Shown here one piece after another: positions 14,949 through 19,951 of a stretch of DNA of 64,000 nt. Both the position numbers and the translations under genes were made by a program. The stretch covers positions 62,001 through 126,000 of the forward strand of contig NZ_JAUCZC010000004.1 of NCBI RefSeq assembly GCF_030373265.1, read 5' to 3'. The notes under the pieces are model-generated. The model worked only from the letters and a program-made list of their open reading frames with translations. It searched no databases and was not told the DNA's origin. This DNA comes from Blastomonas sp. (GTDB lineage Bacteria; Pseudomonadota; Alphaproteobacteria; Sphingomonadales; Sphingomonadaceae). How positions within the stretch are numbered: the stretch's first letter is position 1; every line of letters starts with the position of its first letter.

Positions 14949-16004
14949 CTAACCCAGCAGATCGTGCTTCTTCAGGCAGTGGCGCAATTGGTCGTAACTC
15001 AGGCCGAGGGCCTTGGCGGTTTGGCGCTGGTTGTAGCGGTGGCGGGCGAGCGCGGCCTGGAGGATGCGTTTTTCGTGTGCGTCGACCGCGCCGCGCAGAT
15101 CGTCCACCGCATCGAAATTGAGCGTCTGGTCGAGCGTTGCGCGCACGCCCGAATCCGCCAGCGCGGCATCGATCACCTCGTCGCACGGGGATGCGGCTGC
15201 GGCGGCAGGGCGTTTCGACGGCTGCGGCTTCCACGGCGATTCGAACGGGTCGAAGACGATATGATCCACCGCGCGGTCAGGGTCGTCCCAGCGATAGACA
15301 GCGCGTTCGACGACGTTGCGCAGTTCGCGGACATTGCCCGGCCAGCTGTGCCGCTTCATCGCCTCGGTCGCCATCGCGCCGAAGCCGGGCCAGTCTGCCC
15401 AGTCGAGCTCGGCGGCCATGCGCCGCCCGAAGAAATCGGCGAGCACCATCACATCGCCCTCGCGCACCCGCAAGGGAGGCAGCGTCACCACCTCGAACGA
15501 CAGCCGGTCGAGAAGATCGGCGCGGAAGCGGCCCTGGTCGACCAGTTCGGGCAGATGTTCATTGGTCGCCGCGACGATGCGGACATCGACCTTGATCGCG
15601 CGCGACGATCCGATGCGGGTGATCTCGCCATATTCGACCGCGCGCAGCAGCCGCTCCTGCGCAGCCGAACTCAAGGTCGCCAGCTCATCGAGGAACAAGG
15701 TGCCGCCATCGGCCTCCTCGAACCGCCCCTGCCGCGCGCGCGTCGCGCCGGTGAAGGCGCCTGCCTCGTGGCCGAACAGCTCGGCCTCGATCAGCGTCTC
15801 GGGAAGCGCCGCGCAGTTCAAGGTGATCAGGGGCCCATCCCATCGCGAGGACAGGCGGTGGAGGCGCTCGGCGATCAGCTCCTTGCCGGTGCCGCGCTCG
15901 CCGATGACCAGCACCGGGCGGTTGAGCATGGCCGCGCGGCTGGCGCGTTCAACCGCGTCCAGAAACGCGCCGGATTCCCCGATGAACTGACTGCCCCGTT
16001 CCAT
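14949..16004 (-). CDS. pspF: Sigma-54 activator of the phage-shock operon
   Basis: A 351-residue bacterial enhancer-binding protein with no regulatory receiver domain, as expected for PspF. The AAA+ domain carries Walker A G-E-R-G-T-G-K-E at residues 35-42 and the sigma-54 contact loop G-A-F-T-G-A at 82-87. Walker B reads G-G-T-L-F-L-D-E-L, and R-x-D-L-L-x-R-L-S-F supplies the arginine finger region. The C-terminal Fis-type helix-turn-helix reads R-Y-N-Q-R-Q-T-A-K-A-L-G-L-S-Y. In E. coli PspA binds this domain and inhibits it. It is divergent from the psp operon, whose sigma-54 promoter lies 100 bases away. I used the ATG at 16004 because it fits the family. Confidence 0.93.
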   Translation of the reverse strand: MERGSQFIGESGAFLDAVERASRAAMLNRPVLVIGERGTGKELIAERLHRLSSRWDGPLITLNCAALPETLIEAELFGHEAGAFTGATRARQGRFEEADGGTLFLDELATLSSAAQERLLRAVEYGEITRIGSSRAIKVDVRIVAATNEHLPELVDQGRFRADLLDRLSFEVVTLPPLRVREGDVMVLADFFGRRMAAELDWADWPGFGAMATEAMKRHSWPGNVRELRNVVERAVYRWDDPDRAVDHIVFDPFESPWKPQPSKRPAAAAASPCDEVIDAALADSGVRATLDQTLNFDAVDDLRGAVDAHEKRILQAALARHRYNQRQTAKALGLSYDQLRHCLKKHDLLG

Positions 16005-16104
16005 GCACCAAGAGATAGTGCAGAATCCCAACCTATGGCAATCCTAACCAACAGCTCCGCCGCCAGAATTTCGCAAAACCCTGTTTTTTCGATGTTTTTT
16101 GAAT

Positions 16105-16120
16105 TGGCACGCACCCTGCA
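16105..16120 (+). promoter_or_regulatory. Sigma-54 promoter of the psp operon
   Basis: TGGCAC, five bases, then CTGCA. GG (16106-16107) and GC (16118-16119) are 10 bases apart, which is the sigma-54 -24/-12 spacing, with one mismatch from TGGCACN5TTGCA. Transcription should start near 16131. The divergent pspF gene is the obvious activator; its upstream binding sites should lie between 16005 and 16090 but I cannot define them. Confidence 0.88.
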
Positions 16121-16166
16121 ATGCTTCTGACAACACCGACACACAGCGGTAAAAGGGAGAAAGCCA

Positions 16167-16367
16167 GTGCGTTACGCGAACCAGACCAACGATCAGACGA
16201 CGCAGGAAGACAGTGTCTTCAAGTCCACTCTGGTCACCACGGTCGCAGCGCTGATGCTGGTCACCACGCTGTTTGTCACCGCCTTCGCCAGCATCGAGGC
16301 AGCCGCCTCGCCCGCCCGTCACGGGCTCGATGCCGGCAAAATGGTTTCCGTCCGGTATCTTGCCTGA
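16167..16367 (+). CDS. Small membrane/exported protein, first gene of psp operon
   Basis: A 66-residue protein starting at GTG with GGGAG about 8 bases upstream, 36 bases past the predicted sigma-54 start site. A polar N-terminus (residues 1-19) is followed by one hydrophobic segment, residues 20-45. A short tail follows with A-A-A-S-P-A, which could be a signal-peptidase site. I do not recognise it. It is the first gene under the sigma-54 promoter and is cut off from pspA by a hairpin at 16374-16412. A role in membrane stress is inferred from position. Confidence 0.7.
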   Translation: MRYANQTNDQTTQEDSVFKSTLVTTVAALMLVTTLFVTAFASIEAAASPARHGLDAGKMVSVRYLA

Positions 16368-16373
16368 CGGATT

Positions 16374-16412
16374 TGGCCGGGACGCTTACCCCCCCTTGCC
16401 CCGTCCCGGCCA
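16374..16412 (+). terminator. Terminator-like hairpin between the first psp gene and pspA
   Basis: An 11-bp perfect stem TGGCCGGGACG/CGTCCCGGCCA with a 17-base C-rich loop, followed by ATCTCTTTTATT. It lies 7 bases after the small gene's stop and 82 bases before pspA. It could act as a partial terminator that sets the ratio of the small protein to PspA, or as a 3' end stabiliser. Confidence 0.6.
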
Positions 16413-16494
16413 ATCTCTTTTATTCACCCGGCAAAAGGGGGTATGTTGGATCCTGATCAGATCGACTGACCTTTAGAAGAACGGAGTTTTCGCC

Positions 16495-17181
16495 ATGGGT
16501 ATTTTCTCTCGAACCCGCGACATCATCGCCGCCAATGTTACCGAGCTGCTCGACAAGGCCGAAGACCCGGCGAAGATGATCCGCATGATCATCCTCGAGA
16601 TGGAGGAAACCCTGGTCGAAGTCCGCGCCTCGGCTGCGCGCACCATCGCCGACCAGAAGGAAATGAAGCGCCATGTGAGCAAGCTGGAACAGCTGCAGGC
16701 CGACTGGACCGACAAGGCCGAACTCGCCTTGTCCAAGGACCGCGAAGACCTCGCCCGCGCCGCTTTGCTCGAGAAGAAGAAAGCCGCCGATATGGCCGAC
16801 CAGCTCAATGTCGAAATCAACGTGCTCGATGACGCATTGCGCGCCTCGGAGCAGGACATCGCCAAGCTGCAGGCCAAACTGCGTGAAGCCCGGATGCGCC
16901 AGAACAACATCATGAGCCGTCTGGAAAGCGCCGAGAACCGCGTCAAGCTGCGCACGATGTACAATGGCGACAAGGTCCGCGAAGCGTTCAGCCGCTTCGA
17001 CCTGCTCGAGCGCCGCGTCGATATGGCCGAAGGCCGCGCCGATGCGCTGGGCATGGCCGAAGACGAACGCAAGGTTCTGGGCCAGCGCAACCTCGACGAC
17101 GAGTTCGCTGCTCTGGCGGGCTCCGACAAGGTCGACGAAGAGCTTGAGGCGATGAAACGCGCCTTGAAGAAGGAGGGCTGA
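16495..17181 (+). CDS. pspA: Phage shock protein A
   Basis: A 228-residue PspA/IM30 protein, the same size as the family norm of about 222. It is nearly all helical, with the amphipathic start G-I-F-S-R-T-R-D-I-I-A-A-N and the conserved D-P-x-K-M-I-R-x-M-I-x-E-M-E block. A long coiled coil runs through residues 25-190. PspA-family proteins form ESCRT-III-like assemblies on damaged inner membrane, and in enterobacteria also hold PspF inactive. GGAG lies 8 bases before the ATG. pspB follows 4 bases after the stop. Confidence 0.95.
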   Translation: MGIFSRTRDIIAANVTELLDKAEDPAKMIRMIILEMEETLVEVRASAARTIADQKEMKRHVSKLEQLQADWTDKAELALSKDREDLARAALLEKKKAADMADQLNVEINVLDDALRASEQDIAKLQAKLREARMRQNNIMSRLESAENRVKLRTMYNGDKVREAFSRFDLLERRVDMAEGRADALGMAEDERKVLGQRNLDDEFAALAGSDKVDEELEAMKRALKKEG

Positions 17182-17185
17182 TCCG

Positions 17186-17485
17186 ATGGATTGGGGAAGC
17201 GAAATCATCGTCATTCCGGCGATCTTCCTGGGCCTGCCCTGGATCATCTTTCACTACATTACCAAATGGAAGACGTCGGCAACGCTCACCAGCTCGGATG
17301 AAAACCTGCTGGAAGAGCTGCACGCCATGGCGCGCCGCCTCGACGACCGCATGGATACCGTCGAGCGGATCATTTCCTCCGACAATCCCGACTGGCGCCC
17401 GGCGCGGCTGACCAGCTCGGATGACCAGGACGATTACGGCCTGGAACAGGTTGAGCGCCTGATGAAGGAAAGGGCAAGAAAATGA
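17186..17485 (+). CDS. pspB: Phage shock protein B
   Basis: A 99-residue PspB, longer than the 74 residues of E. coli. One N-terminal TM (I-V-I-P-A-I-F-L-G-L-P-W-I-I-F) is followed by a basic turn and a cytoplasmic helix. The helix contains R-L-D-D-R-M-D-T-V-E-R-I-I and D-N-P-D-W-R, matching the R-I-x-x-L-E-x-I-L and H-P-N-W-R core of E. coli PspB. About 30 extra residues follow. PspB with PspC senses inner-membrane stress and binds PspA. It overlaps pspC by ATGA. Confidence 0.88.
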   Translation: MDWGSEIIVIPAIFLGLPWIIFHYITKWKTSATLTSSDENLLEELHAMARRLDDRMDTVERIISSDNPDWRPARLTSSDDQDDYGLEQVERLMKERARK

Positions 17486-17889
17486 GCCGGCTGGACAAAT
17501 ACGGGTACGAAACCTCTGCACCGCGCAAGACCAAGTTCTATCGCAACAAGCAGAATGGCAAGTTCATGGGCGTGTGCGCAGGCGTCGCCGATTACACCGG
17601 GATCGATGTCGTGTGGATCCGTGTCGCGGCCATCCTGCTGACGCTGATGACGGGTTGGGCGCTGATTGGCTATTTCGCGATGGGCTTCCTCGCCGAAAAG
17701 AAGCCGGCGCATCTGTACACCGACGATCAGGACCAGAAGTTCTGGCAGGGTGTGCGCCAGTCGCCGACCCGCACCGCCCGCGACGTCAAGGCCCGGTTCC
17801 GCGAGATCGACCGCCGCCTGGCCGATGTCGAGCTGTTCTATACCGCCAAGAACACGCGGCTGGCCGACGAGATCGAAAGCCTGCGCTGA
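17482..17889 (+). CDS. pspC: Phage shock protein C with PspB-like C-terminal helix
   Basis: A 135-residue PspC. The N-terminal PspC domain reads N-G-K-F-M-G-V-C-A-G-V-A-D-Y and contains the TM segment V-W-I-R-V-A-A-I-L-L-T-L-M. The C-terminal helix, residues 100-135, has R-E-I-D-R-R-L-A-D-V-E-L and ends in R-L-A-D-E-I-E-S-L-R. That ending is the same pattern as in the PspB-like proteins encoded downstream, so the C-terminus may pair with them as a coiled coil. Start overlaps pspB (ATGA). Known role: inner-membrane sensor and PspA recruiter. Confidence 0.88.
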   Translation: MSRLDKYGYETSAPRKTKFYRNKQNGKFMGVCAGVADYTGIDVVWIRVAAILLTLMTGWALIGYFAMGFLAEKKPAHLYTDDQDQKFWQGVRQSPTRTARDVKARFREIDRRLADVELFYTAKNTRLADEIESLR

Positions 17890-17925
17890 CAGGCGCAGCG
17901 TTCAACAAGGGTTTAGGAGAGCATC

Positions 17926-18246
17926 ATGAGCTGGGGTGGACCAGGGTTTGTAATCGCGATTGTCATGCTGTCGATGAGCGCATGGGTGTTCACCACCTGG
18001 ATCCGCGCCAAGCATGGCTATCCGCTCGAAGATCAGTGGACCGGCAAAGTCATTGAACGAACCGATCCCGACGCTGATCGAAAAATATCGCTGCTCACCA
18101 ACGAAAACGAGCAGTTAACCGGAAAGATCGGACGGTTGGAAGAAAGGATCGCGGTGCTCGAACGCATTGCCACCGACGCCAACAGTTCTAGCAGCCGCCT
18201 CGCCGACGAAATCGAGCGCCTGAGAGTACAGAAGGACCGCGCATAA
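17926..18246 (+). CDS. PspB-like membrane coiled-coil protein 1
   Basis: A 106-residue protein: TM at about residues 8-25, a basic turn W-I-R-A-K-H-G-Y-P-L-E-D-Q-W, then a cytoplasmic coiled coil. The helix carries L-E-E-R-I-A-V-L-E-R-I-A-T-D and closes with R-L-A-D-E-I-E-R-L-R. This matches the PspB layout, with the L-E-R-I block equal to L-E-S-I in E. coli PspB. It follows pspC by 36 bases with an AGGAG site. The W-x-R-x-K-x-G-Y-P-L-E block is shared with the next protein, which suggests recent duplication. Function is unknown beyond the family link. Confidence 0.8.
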   Translation: MSWGGPGFVIAIVMLSMSAWVFTTWIRAKHGYPLEDQWTGKVIERTDPDADRKISLLTNENEQLTGKIGRLEERIAVLERIATDANSSSSRLADEIERLRVQKDRA

Positions 18247-18569
18247 TGGAGAAGCTGGCAATCATCGAAGCGCTCGCCCCGGTAATGGCAGGCGGCATAA
18301 TGATGATCACGATCGGCTGGGTTATGAACACCTGGCTGCGGATCAAGAACGGATATCCGCTCGAAAGCAGCTGGGGTAAGGCCATCTATCCCAAGACCGA
18401 CCTGGAATCGGTCGAGCGGATCAAGCTGCTGAGCCAGGAAAACGCGCAGCTGCGCGCCGAACTGGGATCGATCAAGGATCGCCTGGGCAATGTCGAGCGC
18501 ATCGTCACCGATGACGCGCACCGACTGACCCACGAAATCGAGGCGCTTCGCGACAAGCGCGCGAATTGA
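18246..18569 (+). CDS. PspB-like membrane coiled-coil protein 2
   Basis: A 107-residue paralogue of the preceding protein. The TM segment spans about residues 10-29, followed by N-T-W-L-R-I-K-N-G-Y-P-L-E-S-S-W-G-K. The coiled coil holds R-L-G-N-V-E-R-I-V-T-D and ends in R-L-T-H-E-I-E-A-L-R. Its ATG overlaps the upstream stop as TAATG, so translation is coupled. Of the array members it is closest to protein 1. Confidence 0.8.
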   Translation: MEKLAIIEALAPVMAGGIMMITIGWVMNTWLRIKNGYPLESSWGKAIYPKTDLESVERIKLLSQENAQLRAELGSIKDRLGNVERIVTDDAHRLTHEIEALRDKRAN

Positions 18570-18620
18570 TGGGGCGCGACAGGCGGGCCCACTGACACAC
18601 CGACTACTGGGGTAAACGGC

Positions 18621-18881
18621 ATGCTCGACTTCAATTTCCTCTTCGCACTGATCCCGATCGCACCGTTCGCACTGGGCGGCCTTGCGATCTGGACCACCCA
18701 CAAGCGCAAGGTGCTGAAGCTCGAACTCGAAATTGCCAAGGCCCGTGCATTGGAACGTCCACCGGTGAACGACAAGCTCGAGCAGCGCGTCCGCACGCTG
18801 GAACGCATCATCACCGATGGCCGCGGCCGCGATGACCTGGCTCAGCAGATCGAGGATCTGCGAGAGAAGCAGCCGGGCTGA
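18621..18881 (+). CDS. PspB-like membrane coiled-coil protein 3
   Basis: An 86-residue protein with an N-terminal TM (residues 5-24, F-L-F-A-L-I-P-I-A-P-F-A-L-G-G-L). A basic stretch H-K-R-K-V-L-K-L-E follows, and this member lacks the K-H-G-Y-P-L-E turn. The helix contains R-V-R-T-L-E-R-I-I-T-D and ends D-L-A-Q-Q-I-E-D-L-R. Layout and signature match PspB. The upstream gap of 51 bases has GGGGT but no strong AGGAG. Confidence 0.78.
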   Translation: MLDFNFLFALIPIAPFALGGLAIWTTHKRKVLKLELEIAKARALERPPVNDKLEQRVRTLERIITDGRGRDDLAQQIEDLREKQPG

Positions 18882-18913
18882 GACACTGAAGTCAGATTGA
18901 GGGAAAAGGCGTC

Positions 18914-19183
18914 ATGAATCCGTTTGAAATGGTGATCGGTATCGTCCTGATCGTGATGATCGGAAATGTTCTGAAGGCTCGCTACAAGGCCAAGCACGGT
19001 ATCCTGGAAGACGAGGACGGCAACGAGCGGCTGGCCCAGCGTGCCGACACCGGGGAGGCCGTTCGCCTTCGCGAAGACGTCCGCGCCCTCAAGGAGCGGG
19101 TGCAGGTGCTCGAGCGGGTGATCACCGATCAGCGCCAGACCAGCGATCTCAGCCTCGAAATCGAGAAATTGCGCGACCGCTGA
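18914..19183 (+). CDS. PspB-like membrane coiled-coil protein 4
   Basis: An 89-residue protein: TM at residues 5-20 (M-V-I-G-I-V-L-I-V-M-I-G), then K-A-R-Y-K-A-K-H-G-I-L-E, a degenerate version of the K-H-G-Y-P-L-E turn of proteins 1 and 2. The coiled coil has R-V-Q-V-L-E-R-V-I-T-D and ends D-L-S-L-E-I-E-K-L-R. It follows protein 3 by 32 bases with GAGGG upstream. Confidence 0.78.
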   Translation: MNPFEMVIGIVLIVMIGNVLKARYKAKHGILEDEDGNERLAQRADTGEAVRLREDVRALKERVQVLERVITDQRQTSDLSLEIEKLRDR

Positions 19184-19234
19184 GGCGGCGCATGAACCTT
19201 CAACCGGGCGGCGGGGGCCGTAAAGGGTAACATC

Positions 19235-19477
19235 ATGGAAAGCGCCTATCTCTATCTGACGATAGCCACATCGGCCTTGCTGGCCATTGCCCTGGTCTCA
19301 TCCACCGCATTGCGCGGCTGGCGTGACTGGCTGGCGTTCAAGCGCCACGAAATGGAAACGCACAGCCACTCGATCAACGATGGCGGATCGCCGTCGACCC
19401 ATTCGCGGATCGAGATCGCCGACCTCAAGGAACGCATCCGCAAGCTCGAGGCGATCGCCGCCGGGGTGGAGCTGTAA
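19235..19477 (+). CDS. PspB-like membrane coiled-coil protein 5
   Basis: An 80-residue protein, the most diverged of the array. A longer hydrophobic N-terminus (residues 4-24) is followed by a polar His/Ser linker (H-S-H-S-I-N-D-G) and a short helix, L-K-E-R-I-R-K-L-E-A-I-A. The T-D and terminal L-x-x-E-I-E-x-L-R parts are missing. It closes the psp array, 55 bases before sufE. Confidence 0.7.
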   Translation: MESAYLYLTIATSALLAIALVSSTALRGWRDWLAFKRHEMETHSHSINDGGSPSTHSRIEIADLKERIRKLEAIAAGVEL

Positions 19478-19531: not shown

Positions 19532-19951
19532 ATGACAACTCCCACGCCAAAGCTGGCCGATCTGGCCGAAGAATATGAATTCCTCGACGCCGATGACCGC
19601 TACCGGCTGATCATCGATCTGGGCCGCACGCTCGATCCGATGCCCGACGCGCTCAAGACCGATGCCACGCTGGTCCGCGGCTGCTCGGCCTCGGTCTGGG
19701 TCTACCCCACCCGCACCGACGACGGCGACCTGCACTTCCTTGCCGACAGCAACGCCGCGATCACCAAGGGCATCATCGCTTTGGTGCTGCTGAGCGTTCA
19801 GGACAAGGCGCCTGCCGACGTGGCGAACGCGGATATCGAGGGCGCGCTTGGCCCGTTCGACCTGAAGAACCAGCTGTCGTCGAACCGCACGCAAGGCATC
19901 CCCAACATGATCGCACTGATCCGCGAGACGGCGGGGCGGTATACGGGTTAG
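19532..19951 (+). CDS. sufE: Cysteine desulfurase sulfur acceptor SufE
   Basis: A 139-residue SufE, which takes persulfide sulfur from SufS and passes it to the Fe-S scaffold. The active-site loop V-R-G-C-S-A-S-V-W puts Cys at residue 51, the same number as in E. coli SufE. The C-terminal S-S-N-R-T-Q-G-I-P-N-M block is also conserved. No other suf genes are nearby. Whether the psp transcript reads into it is unknown; I saw no terminator in the 55-base gap. Confidence 0.93.
   Translation: MTTPTPKLADLAEEYEFLDADDRYRLIIDLGRTLDPMPDALKTDATLVRGCSASVWVYPTRTDDGDLHFLADSNAAITKGIIALVLLSVQDKAPADVANADIEGALGPFDLKNQLSSNRTQGIPNMIALIRETAGRYTG

What the first reader, a model, noticed from the sequence alone, without database searches (positions are those of the whole stretch)
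16005..19477. Psp operon enlarged with a row of five extra PspB-like membrane coiled-coil proteins
Downstream of pspABC lie five small genes (17926, 18246, 18621, 18914, 19235). Each encodes one N-terminal TM, a basic turn and a cytoplasmic helix. Four of the five carry the same [RK]-[IVL]-x-x-[LV]-E-R-[IV]-x-T-D block and end in L-x-x-[EQ]-I-E-x-L-R. PspB has the first block (V-E-R-I-I). PspC has the ending (L-A-D-E-I-E-S-L-R) fused behind its own domain. Proteins 1, 2 and 4 also share R-x-K-[HN]-G after the TM. Known: E. coli has one PspB. Inference: an alphaproteobacterial stress sensor built from a set of related TM/coiled-coil adaptors that may form mixed bundles with PspC and PspA.
Basis: partly seen in the sequence, partly recalled or inferred. 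Interest (0 to 1): 0.85.

Follow-up and report, generated by a model that had tools for sequence, protein, structure and literature searches.

The report
Stress operon with repeated membrane-sensor genes
In sphingomonad bacteria the membrane-stress (phage shock) operon carries a row of small related membrane proteins, each with its own membrane anchor and a similar coiled-coil end resembling that of the known sensors PspC and PspB, plus an unnamed small protein at the front; the role is untested but the array is real and conserved.

Summary
Window 14949-19477 holds pspF, a sigma-54 site, a small leader ORF, pspA, pspB, pspC and five small genes (P1-P5). P1-P4 are paralogues (blastp to 2e-23); P5 is a distant member. 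Over the whole 3.66-Mb genome the array profile has seven matches at E<=1: P1-P4, the PspC tail, PspB and P5. The four NCBIfam models matched by most of 59 array proteins are two PspC and two PspB models, at sub-membership scores; PspC's tail is closest. In the order sample 211 of 213 genomes of the window's family match, 206 of them two to seven times. Six classes share one zipper block behind differing TM segments (P5's is divergent). Elsewhere one or two relatives per genome occur, mostly outside psp. New here: a conserved leader ORF (66 of 68 loci), two chimeric array genes, no general gene conversion. Best reading: PspF/sigma-54-controlled membrane adaptors that dock on PspC/PspA through a PspC-type zipper. 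Docking is inferred from E. coli PspC work; mixed bundles are untested. A 2024 survey mentions 'PspB duplicates' in one phrase. New variant of a known system.

The parts
14949..16031 (-). pspF, sigma-54 enhancer-binding activator, divergent (TTG start as listed; true start may be internal)
   Evidence: TIGR02974 488.9 bits, cut-off 443.55
16105..16120 (+). sigma-54 (-24/-12) promoter-like site TGGCACGCACCCTGCA
   Evidence: same pattern between pspF and pspA in 67 of 75 loci, 1.26 expected from shuffles (pattern chosen after seeing the window's site); RpoN domain in the genome; sequence
16167..16367 (+). small leader ORF, 66 aa (GTG start), one TM or signal-peptide-like segment, ends VRYLA
   Evidence: 66 of 68 leaders have such an ORF, 1.4 expected; 64 end in Ala, 0.2 expected; no Pfam/NCBIfam family over cut-off
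16373..16413 (+). GC-rich hairpin with 12-bp arms followed by TCTCTTTTATTC, between the leader ORF and pspA; possible attenuator
   Evidence: a comparable stem in 4 of 13 loci looked at (window, L034, L091, L101)
16495..17181 (+). pspA
   Evidence: TIGR02977 266.3 bits, cut-off 242.95
17186..17485 (+). pspB
   Evidence: TIGR02976 91.7 bits, cut-off 51.7
17482..17889 (+). pspC, with a C-terminal tail ending LADEIESLR
   Evidence: TIGR02978 127.7 bits, cut-off 104; tail found by the array profile at E=1.7e-5 over the whole genome
17926..18246 (+). P1, array class A: TM + zipper block
   Evidence: dN/dS 0.014-0.111
18246..18569 (+). P2, array class B; AlphaFold model: helices 2-35 and 53-106, mean pLDDT 87.3, pTM 0.39
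   Evidence: dN/dS 0.080-0.282
18621..18881 (+). P3, array class C
   Evidence: dN/dS 0.148-0.247
18914..19183 (+). P4, array class D
   Evidence: dN/dS 0.076-0.157
19235..19477 (+). P5, array class E, divergent, last array gene in 77 of 79 loci; AlphaFold model: helices 2-44 and 54-75, mean pLDDT 79.6, pTM 0.43
   Evidence: hhalign to classes D and F prob 95-96%; dN/dS 0.067-0.204
19532..19951 (+). sufE-like gene, usual downstream neighbour, taken as the end marker (not part of the finding)
   Evidence: found in 76 of the 81 loci with pspC; 'SufE family protein' in a RefSeq relative

Best explanation
The five genes are an expanded set of small membrane proteins of PspB/PspC type, placed behind pspABC and a PspF/sigma-54 promoter. 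P1-P4 each have an N-terminal TM helix and a coiled coil whose conserved end (R-x-x-[LV]-E-[RK]-[IV]-x-T-D ... I-E-x-L-R) matches PspC's tail; P5 is a divergent member. The likely mechanism: this block is a common docking zipper by which the paralogues pair with PspC (and PspB, and each other) and with PspA at the membrane. They would thereby set how PspA is recruited and how PspF is released, while the class-specific TM segments set what each one senses or where it sits. Shown here: gene reality, shared ancestry, class structure, operon conservation, sigma-54 site. Inferred: co-transcription, docking partners, topology, and a sensing or tuning role.
For: Whole-genome search with the array profile: 7 hits at E<=1, all in this operon, including the PspC tail (1.7e-5), PspB (0.115), P5 (0.19). 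NCBIfam scan of 59 array proteins: the four most-matched of 18,950 models are PspC (37 of 59), PspB (23), PspB (16), PspC (14). hhalign to the PspC tail: B P=7e-8, A 5e-6, D 2e-5; best reversed control P=3e-4. R, E, T, I, R invariant in all 59 aligned proteins, taken from 13 genomes. Overlapping or abutting genes at 193 of 329 junctions in relatives suggest coupled translation. Sigma-54 site in 67 of 75 loci, RpoN present. In E. coli, PspC with a mutated leucine zipper no longer interacts with PspA in two-hybrid tests and is impaired in psp induction (PMC3068692, section read).
Against: No interaction or expression data. No array protein of the window reaches any Pfam or NCBIfam cut-off. Pfam coiled-coil models (bZIP_1 14, ZapB 10 of 59) match nearly as many members as PspB (15 of 59), so part of the signal may be generic coiled coil. 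Classes C and F match the PspC tail only weakly (14-20%), and PspB and the PspC tail do not find each other at all (0.8%). The paper on E. coli places the PspC zipper in a putative periplasmic region and reports two PspC topologies, whereas I take the array tails as cytoplasmic; that both are the same segment is inferred. In the window only P1/P2 overlap; the other array gaps are 32-51 bases. G269 keeps pspABC with P5 alone, so P1-P4 are dispensable for the operon's survival there.
Confidence: 0.5

Rival explanations
1. Effector anchors: the paralogues do not sense or regulate. They are made on induction and serve as extra membrane attachment points for PspA scaffolds at damaged sites.
For: They sit downstream of pspABC behind the sigma-54 site, so they should rise with induction; many copies of one docking block suit valency more than specificity.
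Against: TM segments are recognisably class-specific across families (42% identity within, 25% between classes), which pure valency does not require; classes were defined by similarity, so part of this difference is built in.
Confidence: 0.22
2. Negative tuning: the paralogues compete with PspC/PspB for PspA or for each other and damp the response (decoys).
For: Same block as the PspC tail without the PspC domain. For Yersinia the cytoplasmic domains of PspB/PspC were proposed to take part in negative regulation (Gueguen 2009, as cited in PMC3068692).
Against: No direct data either way.
Confidence: 0.1
3. Unrelated cargo: small membrane proteins with another role (a general TM-zipper family found alone elsewhere) that happen to be co-regulated with psp, like the small Psp effectors of E. 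coli.
For: Relatives stand outside psp in other Sphingomonadales families and other proteobacteria: 16 of 19 such loci show no psp gene within about 1.5 kb, and 11 of 12 larger neighbourhoods show none among the displayed neighbours.
Against: The same profile recovers PspC tail and PspB. Relatives also sit in psp operons of family f8 (L160-L162) and family f21 (L119, L120).
Confidence: 0.13
4. Artefact: chance coiled-coil similarity, or copies homogenised by gene conversion without selection.
For: Coiled coils give weak cross-matches. Two chimeric genes show that recombination does happen. In the last 12 residues the same-genome pairs A-B and A-C are slightly more alike than expected (+0.05, +0.06).
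Against: Low dN/dS in all five; classes A, B and C occur in all four named families on the tree; in the block, same-genome paralogues are not more alike than paralogues of different genomes, weighted difference -0.006.
Confidence: 0.05

Closest known systems
PspC (PF04024 / TIGR02978), C-terminal tail
   Same: Ending L-x-x-E-I-E-x-L-R and a related helix before it; array class B against the tail, hhalign prob 94.6%, P=7e-8
   Different: No PspC domain; best TIGR02978 match of a window array protein 18.2 bits against a cut-off of 104 (P2)
PspB (PF06667 / TIGR02976)
   Same: Size, one N-terminal TM, following helix, [LV]-E-R-I block; 23 of 59 array proteins match TIGR02976 at E<=0.1, best 1.9e-7
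   Different: P1, P3 and P4 score 9.1-15.9 bits against PspB models with cut-offs of 25.6 to 90; P2 and P5 show no PspB match. Ending like PspC's instead. The operon also keeps a true PspB
'PspB duplicates' in the psp operon (Ravi et al. 2024, PMC11237479, example AOL22920.1)
   Same: Extra PspB-like genes in a psp operon; may be part of the same phenomenon
   Different: One phrase (section read); no organism, class structure, PspC-tail link, array size or leader ORF in the parts I saw; Table S3 and web app not seen
E. coli small Psp effectors PspD and PspG (PspG-PspC contact: abstract passage of PMC3068692; the rest recalled)
   Same: Small membrane proteins under PspF
   Different: No sequence comparison was made here

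Membership tests
PspF-PspABC (classical Psp) system | pspF divergent, sigma-54 site, pspA, pspB, pspC together | tested here: met
   TIGR02974, 02977, 02976, 02978 all over cut-off; sigma-54 site
PspB family | score over the curated PF06667 / TIGR02976 cut-off | tested here: not met
   P1, P3, P4 far below, P2 and P5 no match; pspB itself 91.7 bits
PspB family | N-terminal TM followed by a helix | tested here: met
   hydropathy of all five and AlphaFold helices for P2 and P5; that the second helix is cytoplasmic is inferred from basic residues after the TM
PspC family | PspC domain (PF04024) | tested here: not met
   no PF04024 match; only the tail region of TIGR02978 matches (model 72-121 for P2)
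PspC family | C-terminal tail resembling PspC's | tested here: met
   for classes A, B, D; weak for C and F; not for E
PspB/PspC function | binding to PspA or PspC and control of PspF | not testable with these tools
   needs two-hybrid, co-purification and reporter assays
Array superfamily defined here | P1-P4 share R-x-x-[LV]-E-x-I-x-T-D ... I-x-x-[LM]-R | tested here: met
   (P4 has V for the first I)
Array superfamily defined here | P5 belongs to it | tested here: inconclusive
   hhalign D-E 5e-8 and F-E 1e-8, but A-E, B-E and C-E 21-53%; P5 lacks T-D and I-E-x-L-R; profile E=0.19 in the genome

The most novel reading that the evidence does not exclude
A combinatorial membrane-stress sensor: an expandable array, often with overlapping genes, in which different TM helices sample different membrane disturbances and all report through one PspC-type zipper to PspA/PspF, together with a small exported or membrane leader protein, encoded first behind the same promoter, that acts as a periplasmic ligand or feedback signal for the array.
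Probability: 0.15. Interest if true: 0.88.

Novelty: new variant of a known kind. Interest (0 to 1): 0.64.

Why it matters
How PspB and PspC read membrane stress and pass it to PspA is still unclear (my reading of the field). Here evolution has repeated one zipper behind several different TM anchors, with classes A, B and C kept in four named families. That gives a natural set of TM swaps with which to ask which part senses and which part docks. It also defines a protein family without a Pfam or NCBIfam model and an overlooked small ORF at the head of the operon.

Tried and rejected
Gene conversion as the cause of the shared block: rejected as a general explanation. Same-genome paralogues of different classes share no more block residues than those of different genomes (weighted difference -0.006); the 12-residue ending shows +0.011 overall (A-B +0.05, A-C +0.06); third positions +0.035, which base composition can explain. 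Of 328 proteins screened, 312 have front and end of the same class and 16 do not. Two of the 16 I take as chimeras: L083 gene 1 (class C front, F end; DNA identity to L090 genes 78% and 83% over the two parts) and the L042 D gene (F front, D end; protein level only). The other 14 have margins of 7 bits or less.

Chance coiled coil: rejected for the family as a whole, though Pfam coiled-coil models do match.

Solved structures: no PspC match; PspB only chance-level matches. Foldseek of the P2 model: no PDB match. The models are two helices and say nothing about partners.

Rfam at gathering threshold: nothing in the window. Literature searches that named sphingomonads gave no study of this operon; only 20 of 121 papers were listed. 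PMC5443232 and PMC9241875 mention PSP genes in passing (passages).

Survey limits: the 80 named loci came from a search with the window's PspB (best 80 of 166 kept), so they lean to close relatives. The order, class and phylum counts do not depend on that search, but at most 17, 13 and 13 candidates per genome were scored. Array genes in the named loci were called by blastp to the window's proteins at E<=1e-3; spaces over 200 bp in 40 loci could hide more divergent genes. Classes were defined by similarity clustering of the same proteins, so the within/between difference and the clustering on the tree are partly built in. The patterns for the sigma-54 site and the leader ORF were set after looking at examples, and their controls are single-base shuffles.
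Full report
WHAT IS THERE. The ORFs are at the stated coordinates. NCBIfam identifies PspF (TIGR02974, 488.9 bits over 443.55), PspA (TIGR02977, 266.3 over 242.95), PspB (TIGR02976, 91.7 over 51.7) and PspC (TIGR02978, 127.7 over 104). P1-P5 reach no Pfam or NCBIfam cut-off. The motif R-x-K-[HN]-G holds in P1 and P2, but P4 has K-A-K-H-G.

ARE THEY RELATED. Within the window, blastp gives P1-P2 2e-23, P1-P4 8e-11, P2-P4 2e-7, P3-P4 4e-8 and P1-P3 6e-5. Using 80 named relatives and the window, 408 array proteins (402 different) were clustered into six classes: A=P1, B=P2, C=P3, D=P4, E=P5, and F, which the window lacks. Profile-profile comparison joins A, B, C, D and F (P from 1e-35 to 5e-12). 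E is joined to D and F (P 5e-8 and 1e-8, 95-96%); A-E, B-E and C-E are weak (29, 53, 21%). Reversed-alignment controls reach at most P=3e-4, prob 38%. In 59 proteins of classes A-D and F from 13 genomes, five columns are invariant: R79, E84, T88, I98, R102 in P2 numbering.

RELATION TO PspB AND PspC. hhalign with the PspC tail gives B 95%, A 86%, D 76%, F 20%, C 17%, E 0.2%. With PspB it gives A 63%, B 53%, C 35%, D 7%, F 5%, E 5%. PspB and the PspC tail do not find each other (0.8%). Two searches not aimed at psp genes bear on this. First, the A1 profile against the whole genome (3.66 Mb, six frames) has seven matches at E<=1: P1, P2, P4, P3, then the PspC tail (1.7e-5), PspB (0.115) and P5 (0.19), all inside this operon. 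Second, of 18,950 NCBIfam models, the four matched by most of the 59 members at E<=0.1 are PspC (37), PspB (23, best 1.9e-7), PspB (16) and PspC (14). Against this, Pfam gives PspB 15 of 59 with bZIP_1 at 14 and ZapB at 10. I conclude remote kinship with both, closest to the PspC tail, but no membership of either family.

DISTRIBUTION. In the order-level sample, 268 of 296 genomes match A1 at E<=1e-5. By my count of the rows and handles, 211 of 213 genomes of the window's family match, 206 of them two to seven times and five once; 57 of 83 genomes of other families match, nine of them twice and none more often. Of the two misses in the family, G269 keeps pspABC followed by P5 alone and G266 gave nothing at E<=0.01. 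The 30 loci kept all lie beside psp genes. At class level 26 of 385 genomes match at E<=1e-3. Five are of the window's family. Of the other 21 loci, seven lie beside psp genes (PspB, the PspC tail, or in L119 and L120 an extra relative beside pspABC), one is a pair of relatives outside psp (L117), and 13 were not resolved; most of those are longer ORFs. A broader profile finds relatives in 46 of 398 genomes of the phylum sample, 21 of them outside the class with one or two matches each. Of 19 loci of relatives outside the window's family, 16 show no psp gene within about 1.5 kb; in the other three, all family f8, a relative follows pspB, pspC and a second PspC-like gene (L160-L162). Of 12 larger neighbourhoods that I chose, only L211 (f8) shows psp genes among the displayed neighbours; three hold two relatives in tandem.

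ARCHITECTURE AND EVOLUTION. Of 81 loci with pspC, 79 have array genes; the other two end at a contig end shortly after pspC. Counting P5, sizes run from 1 to 9, most often 5 (33 loci) and 6 (26). P5 is last in 77 of 79; L098 has a class D gene only and L102 is cut by its contig end. Neighbouring genes overlap or abut at 193 of 329 junctions with the start codons chosen; in the window only P1 and P2 overlap. On a tree of 96 proteins from 20 genomes the class labels need 6 changes (4 is the least possible, 57.8 for shuffled labels), although few forks are well supported and the classes came from clustering the same proteins. Classes A, B and C occur in all four named families there (Blastomonadaceae, Sphingobiaceae, Erythrobacteraceae, Sphingomonadaceae), so these duplications are probably older than their split. 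The first 32 residues are 42% identical within and 25% between classes; the 17-residue block 73% and 50% (2,500 sampled pairs each). Hydrophobic positions before and in the block repeat at 3.3-3.4 residues in four of five classes, as in a coiled coil; class A gave a value at the edge of the range. dN/dS is 0.01-0.28 for P1-P5 against each of six relatives, similar to pspB (0.14-0.35). There is no general gene conversion, but two array genes look like chimeras made by recombination through the shared block.

THE FRONT OF THE OPERON. A sigma-54 site lies between pspF and pspA in 67 of 75 loci (1.26 expected by shuffling) and the genome encodes a sigma-54 domain protein. The site is about 390 bases upstream of pspA here. 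The leader between them holds a small ORF in 66 of 68 loci (40-95 aa, one hydrophobic segment, start within 110 nt of the site; 1.4 expected), and 64 of the 68 have one ending in alanine (0.2 expected). The criteria were set after I had looked at some leaders. In 19 selected loci, mostly Qipengyuania/Erythrobacter, its median dN/dS is 0.17 over 163 pairs. In the window's own clade it is 0.16-0.29 against three relatives and 0.6-0.95 against three others. Seven examples match no Pfam or NCBIfam family over cut-off. By eye it looks like a signal peptide or TM segment with a short end, often -[LI]A. In Sphingomonas parapaucimobilis RefSeq annotates a 147-bp gene at this place and the genes between pspC and sufE as hypothetical proteins (the 147-bp gene was not compared).

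HOW IT MOST LIKELY WORKS. In E. coli, PspF with sigma-54 drives the operon when PspA lets go of PspF (PMC3068692, passages). PspC with a mutated leucine zipper loses contact with PspA in two-hybrid assays and signals poorly, while PspB-PspC contact runs through the membrane segments (same paper, one section read). That paper puts the zipper in a putative periplasmic region and argues for two topologies. If the conserved block corresponds to that zipper, as I infer, each array protein is a membrane-anchored copy of PspC's docking end on a different TM helix. They would then form mixed bundles with PspC and PspB and change how PspA is held and released. Sensing, anchoring and decoy roles cannot be told apart from sequence. 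AlphaFold models of P2 and P5 show a long N-terminal helix, a linker and a second helix, as expected but not decisive.

NOVELTY. Ravi et al. 2024 (PMC11237479; [quoted passage not shown] its main text has no word beginning with 'sphingo'. The 2022 survey PMC9239133 (12 passages) has none either and does not use 'alphaproteobacteria'. The eight paper searches listed no paper whose title or abstract start describes this array or the leader ORF; subscription journals are mostly not held and supplements were not open to me. I rate it a new variant of a known system built on a protein family without a curated model.

Noticed in passing
window 16167-16367: Conserved small leader ORF between the sigma-54 site and pspA, one TM or signal peptide, often ending -[LI]A; such an ORF is in 66 of 68 leaders and in no Pfam or NCBIfam family over cut-off.
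   Followed up: partly
window 16373-16413: GC-rich hairpin with 12-bp arms and a T-rich tail right after the leader ORF; a comparable stem follows the ORF in L034, L091 and L101 but not in nine other loci looked at. May attenuate read-through into pspA.
   Followed up: partly
L083 5690-5995; L042 6734-7021: Chimeric array genes: class C front with F end (DNA evidence), and class F front with D end (protein evidence only); they look like deletions by recombination through the shared block.
   Followed up: partly
L160, L161, L162, L211: In another family of the order the psp operon has a second small PspC-like gene followed by a single array relative.
   Followed up: partly
L203, L204, L207: Tandem pairs of array relatives outside psp operons, in other families and another class.
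   Followed up: no
L202 2778-5168; L200 1321-5222: A relative starts 34 bases (L202) or about 1.7 kb (L200) behind a large gene that looks like rpoD (recognised by eye, not tested).
   Followed up: no
L213 (NZ_CP155749.1): The psp operon with its array lies on an 880-kb replicon filed as a plasmid in Sphingomonas parapaucimobilis; the last array-region gene is annotated at 222 aa, about twice the usual size.
   Followed up: no
G269 (L159): A family member whose psp operon is reduced to pspABC plus P5, suggesting that P5 has a role separable from P1-P4.
   Followed up: partly
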